Of a stretch of DNA of 64,000 nt, positions 14,885 to 62,492 are shown piece after piece. Position numbers and translations under genes: made by a program. Position 1 is the first letter of the stretch, and each line of letters opens with the position of its first letter. Below the pieces are notes generated by a model that worked only from the letters and a program-made list of their open reading frames with translations, ran no database searches and had not been told where the DNA came from. Source of the stretch: Azorinus chamasolen (lineage: Eukaryota > Mollusca > Bivalvia > Cardiida > Solecurtidae); the NCBI GenBank assembly GCA_963576725.1, contig OY755241.1, forward strand, positions 55,056,484 to 55,120,483, written 5' to 3'.

Positions 14885-15567
14885 CTAGCCGATTGAATTC
14901 GTCGGTCGGGTTAGAATGCCGTCCACAAACACCGGTCCATCTACGCACGTGTGGCTGTACGGGTCGTAGTAGCCTCGGCCGCCTCCGGCACAATCCCGCA
15001 GATACATATAACCGTAGAGATCACACTGGATATACTGGTGGTTGTTATAGGCATACGGGAAGTACAACTGATTGGCTGCTATATTTGCAGCAGTGCATGG
15101 GACAGCGTGCCTAGTATGGGAGTACACATAACCGTACGAATTGGTGGGACCAGTCTCGTACTGGTACACCGGGTTGCCAGCTGGCTGTGTGGTTGCTTGC
15201 ACCGGGTAATACGACGTAGTTCCGCCATGGCAGGTGTTGACGGGATGCTCAGTTCCGGGATATGAACCAATCGGGACACATGTTCGAGAAGCCGCGAGGA
15301 AAACGTAGTCAAATTGGCAGGACTGGACAAAGGACTGGTGGTTGGTATCGCAGTGGATGTACTTGTGAGGATCGCACTGATGGGGGTACAAATAGGGGTC
15401 TCCAGCAATGTGATGGACACAGGGATCGTAATCGCTATGTCTAATGCATGTGACCAAGGACTGGTCCCACTCCTGTCCGCTCTGGCACTCTCGTTCCCAA
15501 GGTTTGCCCCACACGTCACAGTGGATATACTTCTTTACGCTACCAGGGTACGGAAAGAACATCTTAT
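14885..15567 (-). CDS. Copy 1 exon 14: chitin-binding domains 2-4 and stop
   Basis: Residues 589-815 and TAG, phase 1 in, acceptor ATCTTTTAG. Domain 2 (C605, C616, C629), domain 3 (C638, C653, C661, C672, C685, C701) and domain 4 (C746, C770, C781, C796) each show the aromatic-rich YIHCD or YIQCD strand of peritrophin-A modules. A Tyr/Thr/Pro-rich spacer (about 702-740) separates domains 3 and 4. Only domain 3 has all six cysteines. No AATAAA lies close behind the stop; a T4-A element begins 80 bp downstream. Confidence 0.93.
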
Positions 15568-17766
15568 CTAAAAGATATATAATATTATGACCATTTACGT
15601 TATGAATATTCATGAAGGAATATCAATCAGTTGACTTTTTTATAATGGCACAAGAACACACCATGACAGACACTGTAGACTCAGGGTCCATGCTTATAAA
15701 ACTTTTAGTTGAGTCTGAGTTCGTTCTCAAGTTTTTGATTGGTCAGATTTGAGCCTTTGGCTCTGACCAATCAAAAGCTTGAGAACGAAACTCAGACTCA
15801 ACTAAAAGCTTTATAAGCATGGACCCTGATCTATATTATGTAATAGGCAAATAGAGCAGACGACTCCTATAGTGGTTATCTCATCTGATCTACTATTTGC
15901 AAAAACAATTTCAATGGACCATACACATTACTTCGAGATAGCAAAACATCGAGTCATCTGATTTCTGATCATTTTCCCAAGTTCAAAGCTTAATGTGGGT
16001 CTAAAGTAATGATCTGGGTCTACTCTAGTAGCAGCTACATACGCAGATGACTATGGAAAGGTTCTGATGCAAGTACTTGTTCACTCTTGAGTGGTTATGA
16101 ACCAAATTATCTACATCTTTTCATAAGCAGACAGAGTAGACTCATAAAGGAGCCGTCTGATCTGGGTCTACTTAGTTTGCAAAGGTGTGATAATGCATTT
16201 ACATGTATATGGGAAAAGGGCTAAAATCTAGAAATAAGACTTTGGGATGGTCGCTCTAGAGATGGTGTGCTATGTTCTTATGCATATAAAGAAAATACTC
16301 TTCTAATATTCGACTGCAATTACATTTTGTTAAATATTTCGGTAAAATGAAGGTCAAATGAAGAAATGAGATAAATAAATGCCAATTTCTAAGAAAACGC
16401 AGACAAAGAACTTGATGTTGAAAAGACGAACAGTGAAGTATCTGATCTGGCGGCGTCTGATCTGTGACGTCACTGTTTGTCGTGGTGCATTCTGGCGACA
16501 TTGGCGATGTAATAGTTATTCTTTGTGATTTATGTTTTCCTCTATAAGCTCAAATGTTGTTACTTTTATGTAAACTGTGTTGTTACTTTTATGTAAAGTG
16601 TGACGAAAATAAAGGATCTGTTCTGTTCTGTTCTGTTAAAATAGTGTTTTGTTCAGAGACACCGGATTTACCTTAAACACAGTAAAACCTTGACAAAACA
16701 GTCATTAAGCCAAATCTAATTGTAGATCTATAAGGCAGGTGGTAGCTTAATACAGGTCGAAAGTAATGCACTCTGGTCCTTCGGGAGCTTTCAGCATTAC
16801 CTTATTTCTGCGTTGAATAGCCACTTTGGTTTTATCGAACCCCAGTGTTTGTTGATTTAGTGGTCATTTAAATGAGGTTCTAGAAGAACCTTTAACATAT
16901 TCCCTCCTAGCGACGCATTTTGGGGCCTCTGTAAAAGCCACCTTTTGAAACCATCGTGATAAATAGAGCATTTGCTCCATAGGAGCAAATGCTCTATTTA
17001 TCACAATGGTTTCAAAACTACAAAATTCTAAATTTTCCTTTTCTCTAGTTAATGCTCCTTTTCTGTAGATTAATTCAAAGATATTGGGTCTAAAACAGCC
17101 CATGTAGGAATGGGTCAAATAGCGAGCAGTTAACAAACATTTATGCCTTTCACCAGTTACTTAATGAATATTCATGTAAGAAATTGTGACACCATGAATA
17201 TTAATTTTAGATAAATTACTTATGATAGCATACGCATGGGCACAATAAATTTTTGGCCATGGCAGAAACTGTAGAATAATATATCTATTATATCGTAAGC
17301 AAACAGAGCAGACTCTGATCAGACGGCTCATACAGGAGCCGTCTAATCTGTGTATACTCTGTTTGCAAATACATTGACAGGAAGGCGTATTAATAGAGTA
17401 AAGCGTTAATATCTTCCTTCATAAATATGCAGTTTGACGCCCAGGGGAAGAAAGTAGACCCAAACTAGACTGTCCCAACAGTAACAGACTGAACAGGGTC
17501 TGCTTTGTTTGCTTATGGGATTATATAGATCTTATGCTACAGTTTTGCCATGGTGCAATTGTCTTTTGCAATAGAAGTAGTAGTAGTAGTAGAAATAGTA
17601 GTAGTGGTAGTAGTGGTAGTAGTGGTAGTAGTAGTAATAGTAGTAGTAGTAGTAGTAGCAGTAACAGTAGTGACAGTAGAAGTTGTAAAAGTAGTAGTAG
17701 CAGTAATAGTAGTGACAGTAGAAGTAGTAGTAGTTGTAATAGGAGGAGGAGGGGAGGAGGAGTAGC

Positions 17767-17810
<44 letters not shown>

Positions 17811-20800
17811 AAATAGTAGTAGTAGCAGCAACAGTAGTGACAGTAGAAGTTGTAAAAGTAGTAGTAGCAGTAATAGTAGTGACAGTAGAAGTAGTAGTAG
17901 TTGTAATAGTAGAGTAGGAGGAGGAGGGGTGGGTGAGTAGCAGTAGTAGTAGAAGTAGTAGTAGCTGTGATAGTAGTAGTAGTAATAGTAGTGACAGTGG
18001 AAGTAGAAGTAGTTGTAATAGTAGGGGGAGGAGAAGGAGTAGCAGTAGTGGTAGAAGTAGTAGTAGTAGTTGTAATAGTTGCAGTAGAATTAGTAGTAAC
18101 AAAGCAGGTAGAAGTAGTCGTATTGAAGCAGTAGTAATAGGCGTTTACCTGCGAGTATGTTCTCTCTGGTGCATGGGTTGGCTATGGCGGTAGACAGAGG
18201 GTTCTTACAGTCGGTTGACACGGTCTGTGTGGTCTCACCAATACACTGGTTACAGTCCGCAACATACACCTACAGGAAATATAGCAGAACATGTCTTAAG
18301 CAGCCATTTAATTATCAAACACACGAATCTTAAAAAGTAGGTGGTTGCTAAATGCAGGTCAAAAGTAATGCAGAAAGTTCCTGTATATAATCCCACAAGC
18401 AAACAGAGCATACCTTGATCAGACGGATCCGATAGGGACCATATGATCTGGGTTTACTGTGTTTCTTATTGTGTCAAAATGTGCCTCTATGAGGTAAAGA
18501 GTTAATGAGAAAGAAATTGGAGAAAATATTATTAATGTTACGACAATTTAGCAGATGAAAATTATCTCGAGTAACGTTGTTTGGCATCGAGAGACAGACA
18601 TTGAGTTATTCGAGAAATTGTAGTAAGCGTAACAGGATCCAAACTTGTTCACTCTCTGATTGTTTTGTAAATATGTCGGGAAAAACCCGAAGAAGGCGAT
18701 ACTTACGGTGGCACTGAGGTGACATATGCAAGATTTTTTTTCAAGTTTGTTTTCCCCGAGATAATTTTTTTTATTATCTTGAGAAAACGAAACAAAGTTC
18801 GTTTTCCTGAGATAATTTTTTTTATTATCTCAAGAAAACGAAGTAGTTCGTTTTCGAGATAAAAAAATTTATTATCTCGAGAAAACGAAACAAAGTTCGT
18901 TTTCCTGAGATATTTTTTTTTATTATCTCAAGAAAACGAAGTAGTTCGTTTTGACGAGATAAATTTTTTTATTATCTCGAGAAAACGAAAAAAGTTCGTT
19001 TTCATGAGATAATTTTTTTTATTATCTCAAGAAAACGAAGTAGTTCGTTTTAACGAGATAAAAAAAAATATTATCTCGAGAAAACGAAATAGTTCGTTTT
19101 AACGAGATAAAAAAAATTATTATCTCGAGAAAACGAAACAAAGTTCGTTTTCCTGAGATAATTTTTTAAGTCGTGCGCACGACTTAATAAGCCAATCAGA
19201 ACCCTCCGTCAGAGTCAATTGTTCATCTATGGGGTTTCTCGTTTCCCGCTTAGCGAGGCTCGATAGATTTGCAAACACTTTTGACCTAGATCAGACAACA
19301 ATTAACAAGCGTCTGATCAGGATCTAAGCTGTTTGATACTCGGGCAATGTAATTTTCCCAAAGTAAGCGAATCAGAAGAAGTTACGAATTTATGTGGAAG
19401 TGAATTATTTTTTCTGCGTGATAAGAGTTATCCCTTTCCTCGATATATACGCATTTTATCACCACCTTTGCAAACAAAGAAGACCCGCATCAGACAGTTC
19501 CTATAGGAGCTACCAGATCAGGGTCTATTATGTTTCCTTAGAAAATGTCATAAATCAAGATTTTAACTTTCTACGCCAGAGTAGACCCTGAACAGATAGC
19601 TCCTGAAGGATTTGTCTAACCAGGTTCTTCTATGTTTGCTTAGAACATATACTAAAATATAGAATATAGGCTAGATTTACTTCCTCAAAAGTCTTATCAG
19701 TTTGCTCCTAAATAAATATTTATTATATCGGTATATTCATAGTGATGGAGCCTTTCACGAATAGCCATGTAGGAGTGCATGGGTTAATATGAAGAATCGC
19801 AGTTGTGTATAAACCTGTTGAAAGCCGGGATGATGTATTCGACATATGGGAAACGGATGGACGCTATCCATAAACAATTTAACCCATTTCCTTCATAGTT
19901 TCTATTAAAACTTAATTTTAGGTAGATCTAGTTATATAGATTTACATGCATTCATAAGTGTAGAAACTCTCTTAAATATTTATGGAGGAAATGGTTAGCG
20001 TATCAACGCGACTAACATTTGCGTCTATTGAAAATTGTATAGCCTACATGTACTTTGGTCTCATATCTAACCAATCTGATTCACTGCTTTGTATTAGTTA
20101 GTGTCTATTAAGTGTGGATTTAATGATTTTAAATGCCGAAGCGCAGCGAGCGTTAGCGAGCGAGCAAGGCATTTAAAGTCATTAAATTCGCACTTAATAG
20201 ACACTAACTGATATAGTGTTTAGCCTAGTTTTTGGACAGGATGTAAAGTGGGCGGAGTGAAGCTGGAATTGGTCGCGTGCGTTACTAGGGACAACAGCAT
20301 AAACCGTGTGTTGAGAAAGATGTCAGAAAGGTAGCCGACGTTCGACCTTTGAGACCATAGATGTTTTTGATTATGGACGATGCATTTCAAGATTGCAGTC
20401 TAACACAACTGTTAAATGTGCAGACCCAAAAGTTGTTCAACCCCGAATTAGGTAAGATATTTCATTGAGTCACTCTCGACGTTTCAAGCGCTATGCTCTT
20501 AAAAGAAAGCAATTTTTTTTAATGCAATAAAATGCTTTGAACTAAAATTCAGTTAAACGCTGGAATATGCATCATAAGAAATATTCTTATATCCTAGCTG
20601 ACGGTAGCTTAAAGCAGTCAGAAATTATTAAAGCAGAATGCTCTTAAAGGTTCTGCTTTAATTTCAGTCTGTTTTAAACAACCACCTGTATTCAATACTA
20701 CAAGCTATGGAGGAAACGGTTATTAACCTACAGTTAATATTATCATATTTTATAATTTCAGGGCCGGGGCGAGGGACCAGTGTCATCTAATGAGATAAAA

Positions 20801-23800
20801 GACAGAAATTACCATAAATACTTGTTTAACAGTCAATCGTTGTACAGTAGCCGTTCAACGGCAAAATAATGAAATCTCTATAGACAGGTGGCTGCTTATT
20901 ACAGACAAAGGTAGTTCGGAAAGTTCCAAATGGAGCATTCTACATTACATTTGTCCTGCATTTAGCATACTATGCTAAATGCAGGACAAATGTAATGTAG
21001 ATGATACACTTGTCTGACACGCTAAATTTTTTATATAGGGTCTTCTTTTTGGTGTTTTTAATAATGCTTTTTCTTGTTTTCTAATCTCTGTACATGTCTA
21101 CCAATAAATGTTTGAGTTGCATCAGTTTACCTCATTTCTTAGCCTTGGTATCTACACAGAACATTTACATGTATGTGTAATTGACGCTCGCGCTGTTACA
21201 TGGTGGGACGAGCTAAACGCTCTACGTCACAGGATGTACTCGCGCATGCGCTTGGGACAGCCGATTTAGTCGCTAAGTCAGCGATTAGTGCCTGACTATA
21301 AGAAATTAATCGTGGAGAAATTCAAAATTTCCAGCATTGTGATTGGCCCAAAAAGTAGGTTAAACACTATTGTATAATAAACCAATTACAAGCCTTATTT
21401 AGAACTACTCAACGTCATACTACTACTAGTACGCGCCATAGTGATGTTTGAAACGTCACGATAACGTTATACGCAATTATGACGTCATATAAGCTCATCC
21501 CTTGTCTCGGCCATGTTCTCATAGGCCTCAAATACTTGCGAAAACTGTTGACTCTGATGGAGGGTTCTGATTGGCTTATTAAGTCGTGCGCACGACTTAA
21601 AAAATTATCTCAGGAAAACGAACTTTGTTTCGTTTTCTCGAGATAATAAAAAAAATTATCTCGTAAAAACGAACTCCTTCGTTTTCTTGAGATAATAAAA
21701 AAAATTATCTTATGAAAACGAACTTTTTTCGTTTTCTCGAGATAATAAAAAAAATTATCTCGTCAAAACGAACTACTTCGTTTTCTTGAGATAACAAAAA
21801 ATATTATCTCAGGAAAACGAACTTTGTTTCGTTTTCTCGAGATAATAAAAAAATTTATCTCGGGAAAACAAACTTGAAAAAAAAATCTTGCATATGTCAC
21901 CTCAGTGCCACCGTAGATACTCCTATTAGCAGGTGACATGTTTTTGGCATCGAGTGTTCTCAAGCATATGAGAATGAGTGACCAATCAGATACTTGAGAA
22001 TGAATGACCAATCAGATACTTGAGAATGAATGACCAATCAGATACTTGAGAATGAATGACCAATCAGATTCTTGACAATTAATGACCAATCAGATACTTG
22101 AGAATGAATGACCAATAAGATACTTGAGAATGAACTTTGACTCAGACTCAGAAGTTGTGTAACCTCGACACAGATTTATGACAAAATGTAATGGGTAACA
22201 GAATTTGAGCAAGTTTTTTCGGTGTGATAAAAGTTACCTGTGCTTGATAGGAATGACTTACCTCCCCTGGTGGACACAGAACCACATACAACTTCTTAGT
22301 ATTGTCACACATGAGGAATCTGTTATTGTGATAGGGGTGGGGGAATCGTATGTGCCCCGCCTTTATATTCTCGTCTGTGCAGGGGCTGTTAAAGTTCCAT
22401 TTCTCTGTAAATTAAAAGCAGTAGAATAAAACTTGTAAACCCTGTCAAAAGCGATTTATACAGTAGAATCCCTCTAATGCGACCATTTAATGAATAAACA
22501 TTATACGTAGGTCACTGGCACTTTTTGAAACAGACTATAGTTGTATAATATAATAGTCATATCATATGTGTATTAATGTACTAGTTGCTATAAATAAACT
22601 ATATATTAACCCTTCGCTTGCTATTCATGTCAATATACCTACCTGTAAATAGTGAAGACCCAGATGAGACAGCTCCTGCAGGAGCTGTCTCATCAGGGTC
22701 TGCACTATTTACAAGTTGATTGTGCAACCAGTGCACTCCACAGCAGCGATTGCACAGAGAAATACCTGTACACAGGAATATATATGTAATTATACAACAG
22801 GGCATGGGTAAAGAATGAGAAATGTATTTTAAAATTCAGCAATATCAAGTGCCAGTGAAGCAGGTGGTTGCTTAATGCAGGACAAAAGTAATGGGCAAGC
22901 TCCTCTGGGAGCTTTCTGCGTTACTTTTGTCCTGCATTAAGCTACCACATGCATCTAGCACCCATAATTATTACCCTTTTAGGTAGTTGCATTAGCGGGG
23001 TTTTACTGTATTTTTAATTTTGTATCTTTTGCCCATTTCCTTCATATAAACGCCTTTTCATGCATTTGCAAACAGCGCAGACCCAGATCAGTGACTGCTC
23101 TGTTTGCTTTTGGCATGATTTAGATTTAATTTAACAGTTCTTTTCAAAGCAAAAACTTCCCTTGAACATTTTATATTTTTAAAATTGAGCTAATAAATAT
23201 CTATGATGTCATTATTTCTTACATGAATACAGAATGGGGAAAGTGTAAAGTCAGGTGGTAGCTTATTTCAAGACTGAAATAGTGCATAAAACCCGTTGTC
23301 TGAAGAGAAACAGAGGAAAATGTAGCAGACGACAAATTCTACTCATAGAATCACAGGCATACATGCATCTTATACATTATTACTTATTGTGTCTAGGTAA
23401 GTAATAGTCCCTTTCCTCCAGATATGATTCTGCGGTTTCTGCCATGGCCAAAACTTCCTGTAGCCATGTACATGTATATATTATAACAAATTATTAATAT
23501 AACTGACATTCGTGACGTCATTGGTTCTTTTATGGATATTCATGAGATGCGATAGCACCAGTCTCTTGATGTCGTCTCAGTGAGTATGACTTGTTAGGCA
23601 AGGGATAAATGCAAACGGCGAATCCATCAGAAGAAAACTTCCCCTGTTCTAGGTCAAGACTGTTTATTTTCAACAAATTGTCTTACAAAGCACCTTTCAG
23701 ATTAATATTAGGTTCGTCCAAAAGCATTTTTGGACAGGTACGGAATATTAAATATTACGTGATTCTTACCTGTGCAGTTGAAGTAAGAACTATCACACGG

Positions 23801-26800
23801 AATTTCCACTTTGCCACGGAAACATTTTACATGTATACCTGAAAAAGAATATTGAAAAACTCATTAACAGGCTCAATAAAACCGAAACTGAAATTTTCTC
23901 TTTTTGCAATTGCTGTTTTTGCTTTCGAAGGATATCCTACCATCAGAACTTATACACAGTAAAACCTCTCTATAAAGACCACTAAATTACATGAAGTATT
24001 TTGTGTTAAAGACATGTGGATGCTTAAAGCGAGGTGAAAGTAAAACAGAACGCTCAATAGGAGCGTTCTGTTTTTCTTTTACCTTGTTTTAAGCAACCAC
24101 CTGCCCAAAATACCAATTAATTAACACAATTTAATGATCGTTATAGAGAGGTTTTACTGTACTTCACTTCAGCAGGTGTAAAGTGCTTATGCAGCGGCCG
24201 TGAGAAGCCGCCCCGTACTTCATTCTCGGTGTTGAACTGAACATATTTGCTGGTACCTCGGGATCAATAGTTTCGATGTTATTAGTTTTGAAAATTGAAT
24301 ACTGCTTAAGCCTGTACTAGGGGCTTGAGTAGTGTTGCATTTTAATAACTGCTCATGAACAGACTCAATAAAATCGAGTCTGCAATTTTCTCCTTTTTCG
24401 AAGCAATGCAATGGCAACTCGAACCCATGGATAACTCGAAAGTTTGGTCCTTCCAAAATTCACAATACGAAAGCGTTCTAAACTGTATCACTGTACATAT
24501 CTAGAAACACACGTGGCAGCTAAATGCAGGTTGAAAGTAATGCTGATGGCTCGTACAGAGTCTAACAGCGGCGTTATAGCGAGAGTCACTATGTCTTACA
24601 GTTGTCTATGTAATCTCCAAAGCCCGGTGTTATAGTGATAATAATTCACTTACTGTTGACAATATAACCTCCTAAGTACGGTGTTATAGTGAGAATCGTG
24701 TACTGTTGTCCGTGCAATGTCCGAAGCACAGCGGTATAGAGATATTCCCTGACTGCTATCCGTGTAATCTCCTAAGTACGGTGTTATAGTGATAATCATG
24801 TAATGTTGTCCGTACAATGTCCGAACCGAAGCACGGCGTTATAGAGATATTCACTTACTGCTATCCGTGTAATCTCCTAAGTACGGTGTTATAGTGAGAG
24901 TCACTTACTGTTATCCGTGCAGTCTCCGAAACACGGTGTTATAGTTGTCGTGCACCCAGCACTTCCGTTATACACGTACCCGGCGAATAGTTGATTGTCC
25001 TTCAGATTAATGTACAGCGTCTTACCTAAAGTATAACAAAACCATGAGTATACCAGTGGCGTAGCTGGATCCAAATGTAATGTACGCTAGAGAGCTCCGC
25101 CGGAAAATGTTATGTAGATTTGAAAGTCTTGAAACCATTGTGATAAATAGAGCATTTGCTCCTATTCTATAATAAATGCTCCTTTTCCGTAGATTTATTC
25201 CAAGAGGTTGGGTCTAAAATGGTCTAGGATGGAATGAGTTAAATCTTTTGGCGCCAAAACATTTCGCATGCAAACAATATCGTCTGCTGCAAGACTCAGC
25301 TCCAGATGGGACACTGGGTAACTTGACGTCTCATTGGCATCATAATTCTGATAATAGTTTTAAAAAAGAACTTTGAAACTGATGCAGACGGTGCTTTAAG
25401 CAGACGAATTATAGCGTCGAAATTGTAAAGTGGGAATCAAGGCGGATCACTCACCATCCACATTGAAATAGTGTGCCTGTGACTGTCCCACGAGAGTGAC
25501 CAGTTTATTCTCGAACTGAGCAGAGCTTGGGTAGGGGTTGCTCAGACTCGAGAACACATTCACACCTCCGCACGAGACATTCGTCTGGAAAAAACCCCGA
25601 ACAACAAAGTAATTTGGTACATTCAACAGTTTAACCCTTTCACTGTTTGAATATTCATGTAAGAACGACAGTTAAACCTCTCTATGACGGCCACTAAACT
25701 GGGTTAATGTGTCGGTATTTAGAGCAGGTGGCTGCTTAAAGCAATGTGAAAGTATAGGAGCGTTCTGTTTTACGTTCACTGCTTTAAGCAGCTACATGCC
25801 TTTAGCACAAAATACTTGATGTAATTTAGTGTCAGTTACAGAGAGGTTTTACTGTAATGACATGGTATCAATGGTAGTTTTAGTTGATTGGATGCTATCA
25901 ATGGTAGTTTTAGTTGATTGGATGCTATCAATGGTAGTTTTAGTTAATTGGATGCTATCAATGGTAGTTTTAGTTGATTGGATGTTATCAATGGTAGTTT
26001 TAGTTGATTGGATGTTATCAATGGTAGTTTTAGTTGATTGGATGCTATCAATCGTAGTTTTAGTTGATTAGATGTTATCAATGGTAGTTTTAGTTGATTG
26101 GATGTTATCAATGGTAGCTTTAGTTGATGGAATATAGCTACGACAATCTTAGTTGAATGGATTGAGGCAATGGTAACTTTAGTTGATGGGATTGTTGTGA
26201 CGGTAGCTTTAGTTGATGGGATTGTTGTGGAGGTAACTTTGGTTGATGGGATTGTTGTGGCGGTAACTTTAGTTGATGGGATTGTTGTGGCGGTAACTTT
26301 AGTTGATGGGATTGTAACAATGATAATTTTAGTTGACGTGATTGTAGCGGTGGTAGCTGTTGTTGATGGGCAGTAGAAATGCCAGGTTTAGTTGATTGGC
26401 TGGTAGAGGAGGTAGCTTTCGTTGATGGGATGGTAAATGTGGTAGCTTTCGTTGATGGGATGATAGCAATGATAACTTTGATAGGATTGTAACAGTGATA
26501 GCTTTAGTTGATGGGATTGTAGCAGTGATAGTTTTAGTTGATGGGATTGTAGCAGTGGTAGCTTTAGTTGATGGGATTGTAGCAATATCATCTTTAGTTG
26601 ACGTGATGATAGCAGTAGTAGCTTTAGTTGGTGGAATTGTAACCATGGTAGCTTTAGTTGATGGGATGGTAGCAGCGGTAGCTGTTGTTGATGAGATTGT
26701 AGAAAACAAAATGTTGACAGATCTCACCTGTATAGTGACTCCAGTGGGTCCGGTCAGCACGGCCAAGGGTGGACAATGTCCGATTTCACAGGTAAACGTT

Positions 26801-48915: not shown

Positions 48916-48949
48916 GCACGCTATGACCTATCCTTGATTACAGCATACA

Positions 48950-49088: not shown

Positions 49089-49277
49089 ATGGCCTTTTCT
49101 ATCGGATATTTAAACGTCAGGAAATCTCCAGGTACTCTTGTCATTTATCACAAAAATCTGGGCTTCAAATTTGTCATATCAAAAAGGAAGCGTTTGCAAA
49201 TGCCATCATGATATCTCGAGATACCCGTTCTGCAAAATCATTTCTGCACCCGAGACGACCGAGGGGACGTCTCGAAA
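49089..49277 (+). promoter_or_regulatory. Copy 2 upstream region shared with copy 1
   Basis: Homologous to the copy 1 upstream region. TATTTAA at 49107-49113, about 165 bp before ATG, is a possible TATA-like element conserved in both. Confidence 0.45.
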
Positions 49278-49336
49278 ATGAATATCTTCTTTGTAACCAT
49301 TTTGGTTGGCCTCGGCTATTCTTGTTACGCTGTTGA
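49208..49336 (+). promoter_or_regulatory. Overlapping upstream ORF of copy 2
   Basis: 42 codons beginning MISRDTRSAKSFLHP, out of frame with exon 1, TGA at 49336. Collinear with the copy 1 uORF with only substitutions. Confidence 0.4.
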
Positions 49337-49517
49337 TCTCACACGTCAGGCCAATGCCTTTGGACCGGATGTTGTTGAGGCAGTAGTCAACATAATTCGC
49401 GAGTCATGCCTGTTTACAGACGACAAGAGGTTTTTGCGGCGCCTGGCTTATGTGGAATCTCAGGATGGTTCGTCCCCAGATACGTTTCGCGCTGGGTACT
49501 ACGGCGGCATTTGGCAG
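49278..49517 (+). CDS. Copy 2 exon 1
   Basis: 80 codons from ATG, donor CAG|GTATTG as in copy 1. It has a signal peptide (MNIFFVTILVGLGYSCYA) and the same VESQDG and GGIWQ motifs. The first 45 nt of intron 1 are also conserved with copy 1, then copy 2 is interrupted by a T4-A element. Confidence 0.9.
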
Positions 49518-52500: not shown

Positions 52501-55500
52501 CTCTAAGTTTACCTCTAGTGCATGATTAACAACCTCTCTGGGACTGAAATTGGTCGCACGACTCGAAACGATTATCAACGATTACTGAAGACCACCCGCG
52601 ATTAGGTAACAAGTGACTTGTCGTGCGACCTTCGTATGAATATCGGCGACAAGAGGTCGCTATAAATCGTAAACAGGTCATAAGTGGTCGTGGGTCTAGT
52701 GGGACTGATCCCTTAGACTGTTGTACATGATCAACAATTTCTCTACGACAGAAATGCGACTGAAATTGGTCGTACGATTGAAAACGATTTACAACGATTA
52801 CTGAAGACCATCCGCGATTAACATTGACTTCTCGTGCAACCTTCGTACGAATATCGGCGACCAGAGATCGCAAGCAATCGTAAACAGGTATTAAGGGGTC
52901 GTAAGACCTAGTGGGACTGGGCCCTAAAGCCCTAGCCCCACTAGGTCTTAAGGCCACTTAAGACCTGTTTACGATTGTTAACGACCTCTGGTCGCAAATT
53001 TTCATACAAAGGTCGCACGGCAAGTCACTGATAATCGCCGGTGTTGACGGAAATTGTTCGCACGACTGAAAACGATTGCCATCGATTACCGTGCGACCAA
53101 CTTCAGTCGTTGATCATGCACAATAACCTCCTTACGATCGAACTGGTCGGTTTTAACTAATCGTGCAATCGCCGTCCGATGGTCTCCAACAAGATTTAAC
53201 AGGTCGCTGGTGATCTTCCCAATATTTGGTTGCATATAGTCTTTTCTTAGTTGCCATCCAATCTTATGACTGTCAGCAACCTTTCTACAATTATCTAAGA
53301 CTGTCGTGCGATCACCACCGACTGCCTACAGACTACCTGCGATTAGGCATAGATCACGCAACCATACAGCTATATCATCTGGTCCAAGAAGGCCCATTCT
53401 TCATATAGCTGTTCTAATAATAAATAACGTATTAAAAATAAAAAATAGGCTTGAAAACAATTTGATTTTCGCATCTTATCTGGATTTCTGAATTACTGTA
53501 ACTACGTTTTGATCACACATGTTATTTATAGTATCACTGCAATGTTATCTAATAGCACATGATGTACTAACCTTTATGGTTGAACCCCAACTGTTTGAGT
53601 CCAAGCAAACTAAGAGTCGCGTCTACATGTCGACGCTGTCATTTCTTGTTCAACATACATGTATCTACAAAATGGTATGGTACAATGGTCTGTATGTTGA
53701 TTTTGCAATACTATTTCATATATGAGCCGTACCATATCAAAAACCAAGCTTAATGCCATTCAAACAATGTAGACACAGATAAGATGCATGGCCTCCTACA
53801 GGAGCCGTCTAATTTGGGTCTACTTTGTGTCTGCAAAGGTATAAATAAATAAGCCTTTAGATGAGAAACAAGGTTAAAAGAAATAATATATGAATGTACA
53901 ATTGTACCAGTTCACTAAGACAAAAGATTTTAACCATTCCCTCGTTTTGACGCCCTTTGAACCCCTCCCTGTTTTGAAGCCCTTTGAACCCCTCCCTCTT
54001 TTTGACGCCCGTTGACCCATGCCCTCTTATCGACGCCTTTTGACGTTTTTATAAGTGTCACCTTTTAAAACCATTGTGATAAATAAAGCAAATTCCCCTT
54101 TTTCTTGTAACTGCTTCTTTTCAGTAAATCTATTCAAAGAAACTGGGTCTAAAATTGCCTTTGAGGCAATGGGTTAATATGGTTCAAGCTTTATCTCTTT
54201 ATTTCTTTCAGGTTGACAGGAGTACCTTCGTTACCACACAATACTCTACAACTTTACAGCTAGAGTACCAGATTATCCGAGACAAAATCGGCATTGACTG
54301 GAACAATGTCCAGTGGGTCGACCTCAGGAAACCACTGTATTCCGGTATTGCCGCTGCCTTGTATACACTGATGGAAAGCGCGCCGTTTGGAATCAGCTGG
54401 AAGACGGAAGAGCAGAGCCAATTCTGGGCCTCTCATTTCCACGGCGGTAGCTCGGCTTCAAATTTTTCACTATTGGCGTCGATTCTAGACCAGGGTATAC
54501 ACTTCTTCATTAATTGTCGCCGGAAATCGAAACACATGCATTGCTGTTGTGGAAACATTCGTGGTTACTGTTGCAAACAGTTTAGAATCAGGTCCCGAGG
54601 TTATAAATGGTTTTGCTTGAGTCTGAGATCATTCTCAAGCATCTGATTGGTCAGGTTCTCGGGCCCAGATGAGACACAGCGTAACTCGGTCTCTCATCAG
54701 GATCCAAACTGCATTATACAGGGGTTATGTTTTGTAGGAAATGAAAGGAGACAAAACAGTGACGAATTTAACAAATGACAACTTTTGCAGAAAATACATG
54801 ACAGCAAAAGGGTTCTAGATACTCGTATACAGAAGAACTTGTCTTAAACAGTCATTTATTTATTGAACATAGGAGTCTTTAAAAGCATGCGATTGTTTAG
54901 TGCAGGGCAAAAGCTACAGCCTGCCTTACAGAGCCATAATTATACCACTTTTTGATGGTCGCTTAAGATATGCTCTACTGTTTATACTTTGACTTATTTA
55001 ACCCTTTACCATTCTTTAACCCATTGCCTCATAGGCTGTTTTTAGATCAACCCTCTTTGAACAAATCTACCATATTTAATAGAGAAAAGGAAAATTTTAG
55101 ACTTTTAGCAATTTTTTTGTTTTCCACAACGGTTTCAGAAAGTGACTTTTTCAGACGCGGCAATAATGGAGTAATAAAGAATGGGTTAAAGAGAAAAGTC
55201 TGCTAGAAATTGGATCTACACAAATATTTACTTTTAATTCGACCAAAAGCTTTAGAGAAACTATTGACTAAGCATCAAATAACTTTGTTCCTGATGAGGC
55301 GCCGAGTTACTCGACGTCTCATCTGGATCCAAGTTTTTTGCAACTGTAACAAATGTCACTGTTAGCGGGGTAGAGGTTAGAAAGACTTACTGTAAACAAC
55401 ATTCCTTAGTTCTCCATGCATCAGTAAATGAATACAGCGGAGTACATATATAATGGTACATGTACTACCTACAGTGTAATTTTCTCGTGCATGGCAGAAC

Positions 55501-58500
55501 CAAGTTGCCGATAATTTCCGATGAGAAATTGCACGCTTGCTGTCTATAAAAAGGCCGGCTGTTAATAAATTGTCTCGTGTTAAATTTACAGTCTGTAAAG
55601 TTCATGTCTGTAAACATTACCATTCTGCTATAAGTGTCGTCTATATAAACTGTCGTTTGTCGTAAGTGTTTTCTGTTAAACTATATATATATATCAGTAA
55701 AATTAGCTTTAAAATTGCGGTTCTATAAAAATGCCGTTTATAAAGATGTGTATCAGTAAAATTAGCTTTAAAATTGCGGTTCTATAAAAATGCCGTTTAT
55801 AATGATGTCGTCTATAAATACTATCGTCAGTGAAATGTTTAAACTGTAATTATTAGCTTCTAAAAAAGCCTGCCGTCTGTAAGCATTACATCTCCTTAGT
55901 AATAGTTTCGAACTTTGTATCCTGGTGAAATGCCTTATAAATGCGTCAATAGGAGTTTGTATCAGGTTAACCCTTTCACCGCCAATGTCGCATCAATGCA
56001 CCACGACAAATAGTGCAGTCCCAGATCAAGGCGGCGTCTGATTAGGGACTTCACTTTTTGTCTCATTTTCTATTTCTATATCTGTGCTTATTCCTTTGAA
56101 ATTTGCATTTTAATATCTCATTTCCTTATTTTACAAAATGATTTTACAAAAGTGACTTGCAGACGACAATTAGAAATTTGGCGCCGAAAGGATTAATCAA
56201 CTCCCAGATAGGCTATTTGTTAACCCAGCCCCTTTCGAATAAATCTACTGAAAAGGATTATTTACTATTTACTAGAAAAAGGGTAAAATGGAATCGTGTA
56301 GTGTAGAAATCATTGTGATAAACAGAGAGTTTGCTACTTTTCAGCAAATGCTATATATATCGCGATGGTTTCAAAAAGGGACTTTTAAAGAGGCGCCGAA
56401 GGGAATGGGATGTGGTTTTGTTGGTAGATTTAAAGAGGGTTCACTGTGCTTTATTCTAACCCACTTTCAGGATGTACTCTTCACCAACGTGTTGACCTGG
56501 TCTTCGTCATTCAATTGTCACCCAACCTGACGACCCCTAGTGACTTCGAGAGAACAAAACTATTCATGAAAGAGGTAAAGTAAATTGTGTGACCGTTTTT
56601 TGTCATTATACTGAAATAAGTATAAATATACCGCTAATTTCGTATTTTCATGTACAGAAAGCCTTTATTTACTCTTAACCCTTTCGGCGCAAACTTTCTA
56701 ATTGTCGTCTGCAAACCAAATTTGCAAACCATTCGGAAAGATAGGGAAATGAGATAAATGCAAATTTCAAAGGAATAAAGCACAGTTTTAGATAAAGAGT
56801 GAAGTCCCTGACCAGACACCACCCTGAAAAGGCGGCGTCTTATCTGGGACTGCACTATTTGTCGTGCTGTATGTTTGCGACATTGGTGGAGAAAGGGTTA
56901 ACTCCACTGGTACGCATTGAAACGTCTGTGCAAACAAAGTAGACCCAGATCAGACGACTCCTGTTTTGCTTAAGGAATAATATAGATCTGAGTCTACAGA
57001 TTCTGATATGCCTGCATTCAAATATCATTATAAAACGTCGGCTTATAAAAAATATTTATGAAGTAAAGAGTTTAACTCTAACCCCCCCCCCCCCACCCCC
57101 CATTATAACCCCAGTTGGTTTTTCGTCTCGTAGGATGTTTTTGTTTTCTTTTTTAATCCATTACCTCATAGGCTATTTTTAGATACAACCTCTTTGAATA
57201 AATCTACCAAAAAGGAGCATTATCAACAGAAAAGGATTTTGTTTAGAATTTTGCTCATATAGGAGCAAATGCTCTATTTATCACAATGGTTTCACAAAGT
57301 GACTTTTACAGGGCGTCAAAGGTCGTCAATATGAGGGAATGGGTTAATTTACACATTTTCTGTCATATATGCATCTGTAATAACATTTGCAACATGTTAG
57401 ATCTAAATGAGACAAACTATCCAAAATGATCCAAAACGAATTCGGCAGTGTCTTACATGAGGATCTCCACTCACATTGCTTGATAACTATGATATTGTTT
57501 TAAGAAAAAACTTCACTTTGAAACATGAAACAGACAGTAAGCTTGACACATTCCTCCTAGAACTTTAGACCCAATATCTTTAAATAAATCTTCTGAAAAG
57601 GAGCACTCATTAGAAAAAATGATGTTTTAGACTGCTATAATTTTGAAACCAATGTGATAAAAAGAGCATCTGCTCTATTTATCACAATGGTTTCGAAAAT
57701 GACTTTTACAGAGGTGTCAAAAAGCGTCAAGTAAGGCGCTTTCTGTTTCACTTTCACCTTGCTTTAAGCAGCCACCTGCCCTAAATACCAACTAATTAAC
57801 ACAATTTAGTGGCCGTTATAGAGAGGTTTTACTGTAACTTCTCAAATGTTTGATAGAATAGAGAGTAGTCAATTTTGCACTAGTTCCAAATTTCAGCAGA
57901 CATTTTTTTTCCAAAGCGGTGTAAAGGTTAAGCGGTGAGACAATGGCGCCACTTTATGACACTGGACATGTTTCTATTATGTTTCACCATTCTACAGGTC
58001 ATAGATGGCTTTGAAATAAGTCCTTCAAAAACCCAAGTTGGTCTAATTGTCTTCGACGCTAAAATCCAGTTCTACCTCCCTAGCCACAGGTACGTATTAT
58101 TAGCAGCCAACTGTACCTTTTGTTATACACCCATTCCACTGAGCGGCGATTCCGCTACGCTTCGGTAAAAACGCCGTGAATCGTAGCAGGAACGGCAACA
58201 GCGCATTAGAAACGCCATCTGATCAGGGTCTGCTCTGTTTGTTTATAACATGATATAGATATGATTCTACAGTTTTTGTCAAAGCAAAAACATTTCATGA
58301 AAAGGATAAATTTTAAAAATGCAGCTAATAAATATTCATACGGTCATTATTTCTTACATGGATATTGAACAGGGAAAAGGTTAATGCTTGAGTCACCCCA
58401 TAGGAAGACTTAGCAAAATGAAGACATAGATCAGTCCCAACACTGTGTTTTCTTGATCTGGGTCTTCACAACAATTTGATTCATTTTCTTCAAAGGATGA

Positions 58501-61500
58501 TGGTCAACTGTTTCGAAAGCAGTTTAATCACCTGTTTTATAAAGAAACGTTTCAAAAGCGCAATAGAAGCGCAGCTCCTGTGCTTATGTCGAAGCAAGGT
58601 CGTCATAGCAACGTAGTAAGCGTAGACGAAGCATAGCCTGAAATCCCATGTCGTAGTGGAAGCGTAGTAGAAGCATCTTGGAGAGACCTCAAGCGCCGTA
58701 GAAGCGCGGCAACATCTCGACAGGATCGTAAACAGTGCAGCGAGGTCGTTATTGAAGCGTACTATAAGCGTGCTGGAAACGCCCAAGTCCCAAAATTAGG
58801 CACATGACGGCGCTTCTGCGGCGATTTGGAATATTTTGGAGAAGCGTCATGATCGCCATGAGCGCAGTGGAACCGCCGCCCAATGGAATGGGGGTATTAG
58901 CAGCAAAAAGTACGCGTTAGTAATAGGTATGTGCTATTAGCGGTCACATGTACGTGTTATTAGCAGGCAGTCACAAGATCGTGTATTAGCAGTCACAGAT
59001 ACGTGTTACTTGTGTTCGCATGTACGTGATACTAGCGATCACAGGTACATGTACGTGATATTAGCGGTCACAGGTACGTGTTGATGGTGGCCACATGTAT
59101 TTGTTATTTAGCGGTCACAAATACGTGTTATTAGCAGTCACATGTATGTGCTATTTAATATTTATAGACAATGGAACGTGTTATTAGCAGACATTCACAA
59201 GTTCGTGTATAAACAATCACAGGCCTAACGGCTCGGGCAATATAATTTTCCTCAGCACGGAATAAAAAGTCAGATACCCCGCCAATGAGCTGTATAACCA
59301 ATACAATCTCCTTGCAGAGTTGTCGTTCGTTACTCTCACATACACATATACATGGGCTCATGTCAAGAATCTTGTCAAAACCAATTTGTGTGATATGATT
59401 ATCTGTGTCGATAGGTTATATCAAATTAGCCTGAATCAAGAATAAATAGCTTTTATTTTATCATAAATCTGGTAATACAGTTAAATTTCAGAGAATATTT
59501 GATGACCTATTTTCATGCCGCTTTACGCTTCGAGCATTGCACCAATATAAACAAACAAAATGGAATGATGTCTGCTCGAAAACAGTTTCTATAAATTATA
59601 GATTCCGAACTTCTTATAAGGGCACTGGAATTCTGCTATACCCCAAAAGGGCACACAGCTTATCGGAAATCCCAGCCTTTTGCCTTTCTTCCGTTGAACT
59701 GTCAAAGAAACAAACAAAGCAATTTTACTTTCTGTTTTGTACGGGAGTTAGTTTCATTTCGGACTTCTTTCTAAGCCTACTACAGAGGTATATGTAATGT
59801 AACCGGGTGTAATAATGTACACGGCTAGTCAACCAATCAGAAGTGAGGATTTTACTTTGCAGTATAATGATTTAATTAACAATTTCCTTTTTCAATATTC
59901 ATGTAAGAAATAACGACATTTTAAAAATGAAAATTTTCAAGGACACTTTATGATATGACCGAAACTGAACTCAAATCTATATCATGTCCAAAGCCAACAG
60001 AACAGACCCTGATCAGACGGTTCCTATAGAAGCCGGACAAAGAAAAAACGGACAAAGGTTATACAGAAATCAACCTTTAGTTATGGTTGAATATCTATGT
60101 AAGGAATAATGACATTATGAATATTTATCATGAATATTTATTAGCTGAACTTTTATTATGTCATATAAATACACGGTATATTTTATACTAGTAGAAATTG
60201 TAGATTCATGTCTATTATAATACCGTAAGCAAACAGAGCAGATCCTATTGGAAGCGTCTTGTCAGGATCTGCTCTGTTTGTAAATGGGTCTATGCTGTTT
60301 GCAAAGGCGTGAAACTGTGTTAATATGAGGGGAAGCGTTAACTATTAACTACATGGATACGCCTTATAACAACCGTGCAAACGATGTAAACCCAGAACAC
60401 AGAACCCGTCTGATCCGCAGGGATCTGGACCGCTTCATGGGGGTCTAATGTATTATATAATAACAAGGGTTCCAACTAGCAGAACGGACAACCTTATACC
60501 ACAAGTACAAATATGAATGTAACTCTTGCAATTCCAATGATAATTTTGTAATTCTTTCGGCTATTGAAAACCAATATATTTTACTATCAAATAAATATAA
60601 CCCTCTGACGGTAATTTATGCACAATTATCAATCCAACGATGATTTTCTAAAATTTTCACGTGTTTTCTGGGTCATTGACAAAACGTTCGTTCACCCCGG
60701 TTTCATTATATCACAGCCATAACATGGCAATTTTCAGTTCAAAAGATGGCGTGGTTCGATAAAACAACGCATTTATATCACCAATCTCCATTTGTTGCCC
60801 TCTAAATAAGTAAGCAACTAGCATCAGCGGCCTTTCCGTCTGTCGTTATGTTTCTATTTCGGATGGTGCCATTTTACAACAAATTTGAATGGAGCCATTT
60901 CATTGGATGAGCAAAGGAAAAGTTGGAAAATCCGTGACGTCACGTACAATGGCTCCTTCCTCGACGATGATGGCTATTCCTTGAAGCAAACTGACAAAAC
61001 TCGCTAGTTTTACATTATTCTTTTGATGCTGGGGACTAAAAATTGGAGGTGGGTGATAGAATTTATTCGTTTTATTGAACCACGCCATTTTTTAAACTGC
61101 AGATTGCCAGGTTATTGCTGTGATATAGTGAAACCGGGGTGAACGAACGTTTGTCAATGACCCAAAAACACATGAAAATTTGAGAAAATCATTGTTAGAT
61201 TGATACTTGTTCATAAGTTGCCGTTATAAGATTATATTCATTTGATAGAAAAATATATTGGCTTTCAATAGCCGAAAGAATTACGAAATTATCATTTACA
61301 TTGTAAGAGTTACAGTCATATTTGTACTCGTGGTACACGGATATCGGTTCTGCTAGTTGGAACACTTGTTATTATATAGTACATATAGACCCCAATGAAG
61401 TGGTCCAGACCCATGTGGTCTGATCAGGGTATGATCTGTTTGCGTATGAAATTATATTGATCTGTTCCTACAGTTTTTATCTGTACCAAATGTTCGCCTG

Positions 61501-62492
61501 CTGATGTCCCATTATAAATATCAGGCAATTAAAATTCATAGATACATTATTTCCAGCATAAATATCCGTGACGTAAAGAGTTAATCAGTAAATGGCTGTT
61601 TTTTACCCTTGGTCGTTACCTGTTTTTAACCCTTGGTCGTTATCTGTTTTAACCGTTGGCCGTCATCTGTTTTTAACCCTTTTGGTGCCATATTTCATAT
61701 TGTAGTCTGCAATTCAATTTTGTTAAACCTTTCGGTTAAACAAGGGAAAGAGATAAATAATTACAAATTTCAAAGGAATAAACCACAGATATAAAACTAG
61801 AGATTGAGATAAATAGTGAAGTTCCTGATCAGACTCCGCCTCACCTTGAAAAGGTGGTGTCTGATCTGGGACTGCACTGTTTGTCGTGTAGCATTTTCGC
61901 AACATTGGCGACGAAAGAGTTGAACAAAGTAGACCCAGTTCAGTTCAGACGGCCCAAATAGCAAATTGACTGAGAAATTATATCAGATCTGACTGTTTGC
62001 CCAACACCAAATCTTCTTGCGTACATATGAAATCAAAAAAGCTATTAAATATTCATGATTATGATCATGCTCATTATTTATTGCATGGATATTCATGAGG
62101 TTTAACCCTTTTCCTGTTCTATATGTATTCCAAATTTCAATACTTATTGAATATTTATTGACAAAATAGTTAGAATTATGAAAGGTGGAATATTGTAGCC
62201 ATTTTTTAAAAAAACAACAACTAAAGAAACAGATCTATCAAATTCCATGAGCAAACAGAGCAGACCCTGATCAGTCTGATCTTTATTTGTAAATGCTTGA
62301 AAGGGAGGGTGTTTATATGACGGAAATGGTTAATTCATTTTGTTTCTGTATTTAAGAGACAAACTTTCGTTGTATAACGCCATAGACGCCGTTTCCAACC
62401 ATGCAGTTTCCTCAGAAACGGGGTTAGCAATAGACAAGGCCGTGACGTACGTCTTCAACCCCGCATACGGGGCCAGAGATAATGCTACCAAG
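49278..62492 (+). CDS. Copy 2: paralogue of the lysozyme-like / VWA protein, 5' part (exons 1-5)
   Basis: Exons 49278-49517, 54212-54494, 56471-56574, 57998-58089 and 62357-62492 join in frame to 855 nt (285 codons) without a stop. The exon order and phases (0, 1, 0, 2, 0) equal those of copy 1. Exons 6-14 would lie past the right edge; nothing matching exon 6 is seen in 62493-64000. Relative to copy 1 it has a 3-nt insertion in exon 3 and a 6-nt deletion in exon 4, both in frame. The VWA metal site is altered (see exon 3). It could be a functional diverged paralogue or an early pseudogene; open frames and intact splice sites favour the former. Confidence 0.82.
49563..49822. mobile_element. 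T4-A element in intron 1 of copy 2
   Basis: TTACCCATTATCCG...GGAGTAAAGTGTTAC; core GACGGCTCATACAGGGGCCG. Absent from the matching site in copy 1. Confidence 0.75.
49839..50335. mobile_element. T4-A element interrupted by T4-B
   Basis: GTTTACCTCATGAAATTTAA...GCAAATGGGTAAAAGGCGTC; the T4-B sits just after the core. Confidence 0.6.
50031..50287. mobile_element. T4-B element nested in T4-A
   Basis: TTAACCCATTCCCTCATATT...GAGGTTATGGGTTAA, with a short internal duplication of AAAGTCACTTTGTGAAACCA. Confidence 0.85.
50395..50515. repeat. Double hairpin insert in T4-A remnant
   Basis: CCAGTGTTTTATCG...CGAACACTGG, then GAGATGC...TAATTAAATCAC...GTGATTTAATTA...GCATCTC; followed by CTATAGGAGCCGTCTGATCA. 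Confidence 0.65.
50758..50965. mobile_element. T4-B element in intron 1 of copy 2
   Basis: TTAACCCTTTCCTCC...GAGGTAAAGGGTTAA. Copy 1 (about 39490) has the flanks joined without the element. Confidence 0.8.
50966..51880. other. Intron 1 DNA, partly shared with copy 1
   Basis: 50966-51060 aligns with 39390-39495 of copy 1 in inverse. Open frames here are therefore intronic. The rest is AT-rich with ATGAATATTAATA motifs near 51520-51560. Confidence 0.5.
51885..52060. repeat. 48-bp tandem from T4-C
   Basis: TGATGAGACGCCGAGTAA and TTGGTGTCTTATTTGGATC alternate about four times. Confidence 0.75.
52120..53370. repeat. Unclassified 1.25-kb repeat with internal copies
   Basis: Starts AAGGCTACATTCACACTAGC. 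A block around TCGTGCGACCTTCGTATGAA / ATCGGCGACCAGAGGTCGC / CGTAAACAGGT recurs, including in inverse around 52915-52975. Not seen in intron 1 of copy 1. Confidence 0.65.
53745..53885. mobile_element. T4-A fragment
   Basis: CAAACAATGTAGACACAGAT, GGCCTCCTACAGGAGCCGTC, GATGAGAAACAAGGTTAA. Confidence 0.55.
53930..54177. mobile_element. T4-B element with tandem end, shared position with copy 1
   Basis: TTAACCATTCCCTCGTTTTG...GAGGCAATGGGTTAA; expanded end with CCCTTTGAACCCCTCCCT. It ends 34 bp from the exon 2 acceptor. Confidence 0.85.
54212..54494 (+). CDS. Copy 2 exon 2
   Basis: 283 nt, phase 0 in, phase 1 out, acceptor ATTTCTTTCAG, donor CAGG|GTATAC. It encodes VDRSTFVTTQ...LASILDQ, about 85% identical to copy 1. 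A T4-B element ends 34 bp before the acceptor. Confidence 0.9.
54560..54820. mobile_element. PAL-1 half joined to T4-C
   Basis: GGTTATAAATGG...TCTGATTGGTCAGG then GATGAGACACAGCGTAACTC...GACAGCAAAAGGGTT. Confidence 0.6.
54825..54985. mobile_element. T2-3 element, core lost
   Basis: CAGAAGAACTTGTCTTAAAC...GATATGCTCTACTG. Confidence 0.6.
55015..55189. mobile_element. T4-B element, core lost
   Basis: TTAACCCATTGCC...GAATGGGTTAA. Confidence 0.75.
55280..55345. mobile_element. T4-C core, shared with copy 1 intron 2
   Basis: GATGAGGCGCCGAGTTACTC...CTGGATCCAAG followed by CTTACTGTAAACAACATTCC as in copy 1. Confidence 0.7.
55560..55880. repeat. Degenerate CTATAAA/CTGTAAA repeats
   Basis: Includes a 60-bp direct duplication, GTAAAATTAGCTTTAAAATT (55694, 55753). 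Confidence 0.7.
55967..56196. mobile_element. T4-D element, full
   Basis: TTAACCCTTTCACCGCCAAT...GCCGAAAGGATTAA. Confidence 0.85.
56221..56410. mobile_element. T4-B element, right TTAA lost
   Basis: TTAACCCAGCCCC...GAGGCGCCGAAGGGAATGGG. Confidence 0.65.
56471..56574 (+). CDS. Copy 2 exon 3: VWA start with lost MIDAS
   Basis: 104 nt, 3 nt longer than in copy 1, acceptor CCACTTTCAG, donor GAG|GTAAAG. It encodes VDLVFVIQLSPNLTTPSDFE. The position of DSSAS in copy 1 reads QLSPN here (56512-56526), so the metal-coordinating Asp and the second Ser are gone. Confidence 0.9.
56675..56901. mobile_element. T4-D element, full
   Basis: TTAACCCTTTCGGCGC...GAGAAAGGGTTAA; core CCTGAAAAGG. Confidence 0.85.
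57153..57347. mobile_element. T4-B element, left core arm lost
   Basis: TTAATCCATTACC...GAATGGGTTAA. Confidence 0.78.
57555..57834. mobile_element. T4-B fragment joined to T2-1 half
   Basis: T4-B text 57555-57732, then from GTAAGGCGCTTTCTG the T2-1 right half to GAGAGGTTTTACTG. Confidence 0.65.
57998..58089 (+). CDS. Copy 2 exon 4
   Basis: 92 nt, two codons shorter than in copy 1, phase 0 in, phase 2 out, acceptor TTCTACAG, donor CACAG|GTACGT. It encodes VGLIVFDAKIQFYL where copy 1 has VGLIVYSSNADIQFYL. Confidence 0.88.
58124..58895. mobile_element. TIR element inserted in donor minisatellite
   Basis: Ends ACACCCATTCCACTGAGCGG and inverse (CCGCCCAATGGAATGGGGGT), about 30 bp of TIR. The surrounding repeat gives the empty site GTTATTAGCAG, so a 2-bp AT or TA duplication. 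A T4-A right half (58199-58384) lies inside. Confidence 0.7.
58896..59160. repeat. Minisatellite from the exon 4 donor, copy 2
   Basis: Unit GTTATTAGCGGTCACAGGTAC, about 11 diverged copies; same phase and sequence type as the copy 1 array. Confidence 0.85.
59210..59870. other. Unassigned intron DNA
   Basis: No repeat or exon recognised. Confidence 0.4.
59878..60345. mobile_element. T4-A elements, degraded, two in a row
   Basis: AACAATTTCC...core GACGGTTCCTATAGAAGCCG (60017); then TGAATATCTATGTAAGGAAT...GGGGAAGCGTTAA (to 60341). Confidence 0.55.
60341..61580. mobile_element. T4-A element with 0.95-kb inverted-repeat insert
   Basis: TTAACTATTAACTACATGG...GACGTAAAGAGTTAA. The T4-A core is opened by a large inverted repeat: left arm about 60410-60770, right arm about 61065-61410, with unique DNA between. 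Confidence 0.65.
61600..61675. repeat. Tandem TTTTAACCCTTGGTCGTTAT
   Basis: Three to four units of about 24 bp next to a T4-D end. Confidence 0.75.
61673..61922. mobile_element. T4-D element
   Basis: TTAACCCTTTTGGTGCC...GACGAAAGAGTTGAA; core CACCTTGAAAAGGTG. Confidence 0.8.
62102..62333. mobile_element. T4-A element, shared position with copy 1
   Basis: TTAACCCTTTTCCTG...GGAAATGGTTAA; core shortened. It ends 23 bp before the exon 5 acceptor. Confidence 0.8.
62357..62492 (+). CDS. Copy 2 exon 5
   Basis: 136 nt, phase 2 in, phase 0 out, acceptor TATTTAAG (weaker than TATTTCAG in copy 1), donor AAG|GTAATG. It encodes SSETGLAIDKAVTYVFNPAY; the MIDAS threonine is retained. 8 of 46 residues differ from copy 1. 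Confidence 0.87.

What the first reader, a model, noticed from the sequence alone, without database searches (positions are those of the whole stretch)
14885..62492. Inverted head-to-head duplication of a multi-exon extracellular gene
Two paralogues run away from each other with starts 7.5 kb apart. Exons 1-5 agree in order, phase and nearly in length (240/240, 283/283, 101/104, 98/92, 136/136 nt). Upstream sequence, the first 45 nt of intron 1, parts of introns 1 and 2 and several MITE positions are also shared. The pair is a dated frame in which each transposon can be called older or younger than the duplication.
Basis: seen in the sequence. Interest (0 to 1): 0.8.

Follow-up and report, generated by a model that had tools for sequence, protein, structure and literature searches.

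The report
Mirrored clam gene pair, one altered
A clam-like mollusc carries two mirror-image copies of a secreted chitin-binding gene; this kind of copying is already known, but the second copy has lost the metal-gripping site of its adhesion domain while the part of it that can be seen still reads as an intact gene.

Summary
Two paralogues run apart from starts 7,477 bp apart; the five exon pairs have exactly the stated lengths and shared phases. Homology continues outside exons: an inverted collinear chain of low-copy non-exonic blocks scores 1,673 bits against 55-247 in five controls. It is patchy, so the 'dated frame' for transposons is partial, though one clean case exists: a 1,002-bp element in B with an 8-bp target duplication and an empty site in A. 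The best named homologues are bivalve. Gene A has 14 exons, 815 aa: helical N-terminal domain, VWA, chitin-binding CBM_14 repeats. Gene B is open through five exons to the window edge. Of 42 family-conserved sites, A departs at 0 and B at 4, all 4 in or beside the VWA metal-site (MIDAS) motifs. Reading: an old reverse tandem duplication in which B kept its N-terminal domain and probably lost metal-dependent adhesion. Reverse tandem duplication of VWA/chitin-binding genes with later VWA loss is published for Pif genes (PMC10543319): a new member of a known kind. Side finds: an N-terminal domain without a Pfam match, and minisatellites grown from splice donors.

The parts
14885..41801 (-). Gene A, 14 exons (e1 41562-41801, e2 37175-37457, e3 35903-36003, e4 34484-34581, e5 32275-32410, e6 29999-30172, e7 29042-29102, e8 26728-26819, e9 25455-25584, e10 24909-25025, e11 23770-23838, e12 22262-22404, e13 18149-18269, e14 14885-15567), 815 aa plus stop
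   Evidence: open reading frame through all junctions, GT/AG sites, tblastn with Mya, Mercenaria and Dreissena homologues; no transcript data
49278..62492 (+). Gene B, five exons seen (e1 49278-49517, e2 54212-54494, e3 56471-56574, e4 57998-58089, e5 62357-62492), 285 aa, runs off the window
   Evidence: e5 acceptor ends AAG where A has CAG
41802..43228 (-). Upstream flank of A homologous to that of B (solid to 42562, weak beyond)
   Evidence: 154 of 168 identical in 41802-41970, 282 of 352 in 41971-42562
48534..49277 (+). Upstream flank of B homologous to that of A (solid from 48705)
43229..48533 (.). Spacer between the arms; no low-copy collinear block found in it
56512..56531 (+). B exon 3 stretch where the MIDAS DxSxS (DSSAS in A) reads QLSPN, with a one-codon insertion just after
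   Evidence: 7 of 12 exon-3 substitutions fall in 17 of 101 nt; family comparison
41562..41801 (-). A exon 1: start that looks like a signal peptide, and first part of the N-terminal domain
37175..37457 (-). A exon 2: rest of the N-terminal domain
60416..61417 (+). B-only insert of 1,002 bp in intron 4, with inverted-repeat arms 60420-60793/61040-61412 and an 8-bp target duplication (60408-60415, 61418-61425); empty site in A at 33226-33233
33898..34483 (-). A intron 4 minisatellite, 23-nt unit holding the exon 4 donor (9 AGGTACG)
58890..59190 (+). B intron 4 minisatellite of the same kind, separated from its donor by roughly 0.8 kb

Best explanation
A segment of a bivalve genome holding a multi-exon secreted gene was duplicated in inverted, head-to-head orientation. 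The copies kept their reading frames as far as they are seen, and a well conserved block just upstream of the start codon. Copy A kept the family's form: N-terminal domain, VWA with intact MIDAS, chitin-binding repeats. Copy B kept the N-terminal domain under purifying selection but replaced metal-coordinating residues of its VWA domain, so it probably no longer binds ligands through a metal ion. The duplication and the residue changes are shown. That B is expressed, that A binds metal, and that B works as a MIDAS-free variant are inferred.
Against: No transcript evidence for either gene. B is seen only to exon 5, so a later disabling change cannot be excluded; its exon 5 has dN/dS near 1 and an AAG acceptor. 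Faster evolution of B is significant with 2 of 5 outgroups (p 0.033, 0.033, 0.11, 0.11, 0.25). One of 95 homologues lacks D189 and one lacks S193, and P0113 has R at the GxT position and T at the later Asp, so MIDAS erosion is not unique to B. Many working VWA domains lack a perfect MIDAS (recalled). G258 and T260 are less strictly conserved (86 and 91 of 95), and T to S may still bind metal (recalled).
Confidence: 0.75

Rival explanations
1. B is a decaying pseudogene whose VWA changes are just the first damage.
For: Exon 5 dN/dS 1.02, AAG acceptor at e5, in-frame indels in e3 and e4, longer end branch (0.12 against 0.038).
Against: No stop or frameshift in 855 coding nt; e1-e2 dN/dS 0.25 and 0.19; the four departures from conserved sites lie in one functional site instead of being scattered.
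Confidence: 0.25
2. The two copies are older than they look and are kept similar by gene conversion between the inverted arms, at least around exon 1.
For: The 169 nt upstream of the start are 154 of 168 identical, against 282 of 352 further out (p 0.0006) and 365 of 464 in five intron flanks taken (p 9e-5); exon 1 dS 0.156 against 0.315 for e2-5.
Against: The synonymous difference is not significant (Fisher p 0.089) and exon 5 is lower still (dS 0.101); the five flanks leave out those that did not align, and the 200 nt before e5 are 150 of 172 identical; constraint on a 5' UTR or promoter would give the same pattern.
Confidence: 0.2
3. Assembly artefact: the two copies are alleles of one gene joined in inverted orientation.
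For: Bivalves are highly heterozygous (recalled).
Against: dS 0.265, mostly unalignable introns with unmatched stretches up to 985 bp, and no stretch of near-identity in the 30-block non-exonic chain other than one 34-nt repeat match.
Confidence: 0.03
4. The MIDAS replacement in B was driven by positive selection for a new ligand.
For: In the six codons DSSASL of A, five changes are nonsynonymous and two synonymous; 5 or more of 51 nonsynonymous changes in 13.5 of 659 sites has p 0.004.
Against: The stretch was picked after seeing it; relaxed constraint gives the same signal; no outgroup DNA for a branch-site test.
Confidence: 0.17

Closest known systems
Pif/LamG3 gene cluster of bivalves (PMC10543319; section 10 and passages seen)
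   Same: Reverse tandem duplications of a VWA + chitin-binding gene on one chromosome, with later loss of the VWA domain in daughter copies.
   Different: There the VWA domain is lost; here the domain is still recognised by Pfam and the metal site is lost. Gene A has an N-terminal domain and no laminin G match in Pfam at E 0.1, so I do not call it Pif.
[quoted passage not shown] PMC7747718, passages seen)
   Same: One VWA followed by chitin-binding domains; family expanded in molluscs.
   Different: The passages seen mention no N-terminal domain ('n-terminal' occurs 0 times in the main text); whether A is in shell is unknown.
Integrin I domains and PTMP1 of mussel byssus (structures)
   Same: VWA fold with a MIDAS site.
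   Different: Match is by fold, of a model of the Mya paralogue P0016, not of A or B themselves.
Lytic transglycosylases, goose-type lysozyme and a bacterial GH23-type chitinase (fold match only; the family number is recalled)
   Same: Fold match of repeats of the N-terminal domain in P0097; conserved Glu in VES..GGIWQ.
   Different: No sequence-profile match; low-confidence model; activity unknown.
Intron gain by tandem duplication (PMC4974935; listing only), for the donor arrays
   Same: Tandem duplication that copies splice-site sequence (recalled for the mechanism).
   Different: Here the copies lie as arrays inside existing introns; no new intron is shown.

Membership tests
Reverse (inverted) tandem gene duplication | Neighbouring paralogues on opposite strands | tested here: met
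Reverse (inverted) tandem gene duplication | Same exon structure and collinear non-exonic homology | tested here: met
Reverse (inverted) tandem gene duplication | Closest relatives are each other | tested here: met
   pair support 100/100 among 24 rows; the rest of the assembly could not be searched
Reverse (inverted) tandem gene duplication | Defined breakpoints | tested here: inconclusive
   homology fades at 43228/48534; the outer end of B lies beyond the window
VWA-CB domain-containing proteins | VWA and chitin-binding domain in one protein | tested here: met
   gene A: VWA E 7.1e-45, CBM_14 E 1.5e-12 with 3 stretches; B is not seen beyond part of its VWA
Pif | Laminin G region after the chitin-binding domain | tested here: inconclusive
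   no LamG family at E 0.1 in Pfam; the cited work used SMART and BLAST
Pif | Present in the shell matrix | not testable with these tools
   no proteome of this species at hand
MIDAS-bearing VWA (copy A) | DxSxS, GxT and a later Asp | tested here: met
   D189, S191, S193, T260, D293 present in A
MIDAS-bearing VWA (copy B) | DxSxS and GxT | tested here: not met
   QxSxN and VxS; the later Asp would be in exon 6, beyond the window
Lysozyme-like fold, N-terminal domain | Sequence profile match | tested here: not met
   Pfam, NCBIfam and PDB sequences; best PDB hits are not lysozymes
Lysozyme-like fold, N-terminal domain | Fold match | tested here: inconclusive
Lysozyme-like fold, N-terminal domain | Conserved Glu of the catalytic type | tested here: inconclusive
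   E60 in 28 of 29 single-domain relatives and in A and B, but in only 63 of 95 homologues of the longer family (where the column is printed as E61)

The most novel reading that the evidence does not exclude
Duplication would be a route that frees the lysozyme-like head from its matrix anchor.
Probability: 0.2. Interest if true: 0.6.

Novelty: new member of a known kind. Interest (0 to 1): 0.4.

Why it matters
The pair sets a VWA domain with and without its metal site side by side in the same protein context, in a family tied by its domains to chitin matrices. It also shows a reverse tandem duplication of a VWA/chitin-binding gene that is not an evident Pif. The N-terminal domain without a Pfam model and the splice-donor minisatellites are the less ordinary parts, and each could be followed on its own.

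Tried and rejected
Own-genome search for further copies and for the rest of B: not completed. Misplaced allele: rejected on divergence. Whole-intron dating of transposons: given up because introns 1 and 3 align at 43%; one element could be dated. Gene conversion at exon 1: suggestive, not shown. Faster second copy: p<0.05 with 2 of 5 outgroups for A/B, 3 of 5 for the Mya pair, 2 of 5 for the Mercenaria pair, so told as a tendency. The first gene A model, of 10 exons and 702 aa, was used and lacked four exons; one search mends it. That search scored only the 7,993 candidates sharing most words. PDB sequence searches of the N-terminal domain: best E 0.11 and 0.016 (single stretch E 11), not credible. 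Donor arrays: donor junctions exceed the maximum of 30 shuffles in 4 of 17 introns, acceptors in 1 of 17 (A intron 6), so donors are not clearly favoured over acceptors. A fourth array beside a donor (A intron 7, 42-nt unit) did not score as donor-derived. Literature searches. For donor-derived minisatellites and for this N-terminal domain I saw no title or abstract start on the subject; beyond the listings I opened three papers only.

Full report
Observation. The two gene models were rebuilt from the sequence. Exon pairs e1-e5 have lengths 240/240, 283/283, 101/104, 98/92 and 136/136 and the same entering phases, with GT donors and AG acceptors. The start codons are 7,477 bp apart on opposite strands. 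The e5 acceptor of B ends in AAG where A has CAG.

More than exons. With exons masked, inverted collinear blocks of low repeat depth between the arms form a chain of 20 blocks and 1,673 bits; the same measure gives 247 bits on the other strand and 55 to 165 bits for two other stretches of the window on both strands. Without the depth filter it is 2,699 bits against 702 to 1,342. Upstream homology is solid to 42562/48705 and weak to 43228/48534, leaving a spacer of about 5.3 kb. The homology is in islands: 30 blocks, 3,551 columns. Forced alignment of whole introns 1-4 gives 43%, 60%, 43% and 51% identity.

Transposon frame. It works where islands remain. B intron 4 holds a 1,002-bp insert (60416-61417) with inverted-repeat arms, flanked by the 8-bp duplication GTCTGATC; in A the two flanks run on without it and the 8 bp occur once, at 33226-33233. 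This element is younger than the duplication. The island 36674-36973/55244-55534 contains a short palindrome also seen at 42053-42113 and is shared by both copies, so it is older. Most other intron sequence cannot be placed this way.

Identity. The best named hits are bivalves: Mya, Mercenaria, Dreissena, Sinanodonta; below them come other molluscs, unnamed metagenome rows, vertebrate integrins and collagen, and a nematode (112 hits, 7,993 candidates scored). In a tree of 24 rows (22 homologues plus A and B), A and B pair with 100/100 and group with the Mercenaria, Dreissena and Mya rows (99/96). No call names the species. Gene A has 14 exons and 815 codons plus stop, with VWA (E 7.1e-45) and three CBM_14 stretches. 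The start looks like a signal peptide by eye.

Difference between the copies. Overall dN is 0.082 and dS 0.265; dN/dS by exon is 0.25, 0.19, 0.37, 0.36 and 1.02. I aligned A and B with 95 of the 112 homologues (P0001-P0095). Of 42 columns at least 90% conserved, A departs at none and B at four: D189Q, S193N, G258V, T260S. These belong to, or adjoin, the DxSxS and GxT motifs of the MIDAS (motifs recalled). In exon 3, 7 of 12 substitutions fall within 17 of 101 nt, with an adjacent 3-nt insertion; five of those seven are nonsynonymous. In the second search (45 hits) the eight new VWA-bearing rows keep DxSxS; one of them, P0113, is altered at GxT and at the later Asp. Against this reading: one homologue in 95 lacks D189 and one lacks S193, B is not seen past exon 5, and its extra rate is significant with two of five outgroups.

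Age. dS of about 0.27 to 0.32 and the failure of most introns to align suggest tens of millions of years. This is inference from recalled rates, not a result of a call.

Exon 1 block. The first 169 nt upstream are 154 of 168 identical, against 282 of 352 further upstream and 365 of 464 in five intron flanks. Exon 1 dS is 0.156 against 0.315 for the rest, not significant (p 0.089), and exon 5 is lower still. Conversion between the arms, or a constrained promoter or 5' UTR, would both do.

Other lineages. Mya has P0001 (796 aa) and P0016 (443 aa), Mercenaria P0002 (794 aa) and P0013 (546 aa). Each pair reports one contig length and groups together (100/99), with end branches 0.031 against 0.17 and 0.011 against 0.15. 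P0016 lacks the chitin-binding part and P0013 keeps one repeat, if those gene models are right. This resembles the A/B split, but the rate tests are mixed.

Splice-donor minisatellites. In A, introns 4, 6 and 10 hold arrays whose unit contains the end of the preceding exon and its donor. B intron 4 has a 23-nt array like that of A intron 4, which suggests that this array predates the duplication. Donor-junction scores are 20, 31, 24 and 16 against shuffle maxima of 13, 12, 13 and 12; the other 13 introns do not exceed theirs, and one acceptor of 17 does.

What is known. Reverse tandem duplication of VWA/chitin-binding genes with later VWA loss is described for the Pif/LamG3 cluster of bivalves (PMC10543319: section 10 and passages seen). 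VWA-CB proteins as a molluscan family are in PMC7747718 (passages), and BMSP in a heterodont clam in PMC8217771 (passages). The pair is therefore a new member of a known kind; loss of the MIDAS residues with the domain kept is the local twist.

Verdict.

Noticed in passing
33898-34483, 29525-29998, 24597-24908 (gene A introns 4, 6, 10); 58890-59190 (gene B intron 4): Minisatellites whose repeat unit contains the 3' end of the preceding exon and its splice donor, giving rows of donor copies.
   Followed up: partly
41562-41801 and 37175-37457; P0097-P0106, P0108 and 29 short rows: An N-terminal domain with no Pfam match, also found alone or in tandem in other proteins, with a weak lysozyme/lytic-transglycosylase fold match.
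   Followed up: partly
60416-61417: 1,002-bp element in B intron 4 with long inverted-repeat arms and 8-bp target duplication; empty site in A at 33226-33233. The length of the duplication would fit a hAT-type element (recalled).
   Followed up: partly
41802-41970 / 49110-49277: Upstream block more similar between the copies than neighbouring non-coding DNA: gene conversion or regulatory constraint.
   Followed up: partly
P0001/P0016 (Mya) and P0002/P0013 (Mercenaria): Separate duplicate pairs in which one copy is long and slow and the other shorter and faster.
   Followed up: partly
6681-7317: 20-nt tandem array, 31.9 copies, 96% matches.
   Followed up: no
928-1136, 7838-8045, 23956-24165, 35044-35254, 35639-35852, 39930-40137, half copy 57734-57841: A palindromic dispersed element of about 210 bp, pairwise about 81-94% identical.
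   Followed up: no
18743-19167 and 21599-21876: Two arrays of a 49/98-nt unit in opposite orientation in gene A intron 12, up to 93% identical.
   Followed up: no
17572-18098: Trinucleotide array of about 527 bp in gene A intron 13 that yields long ORFs on both strands, likely spurious.
   Followed up: no
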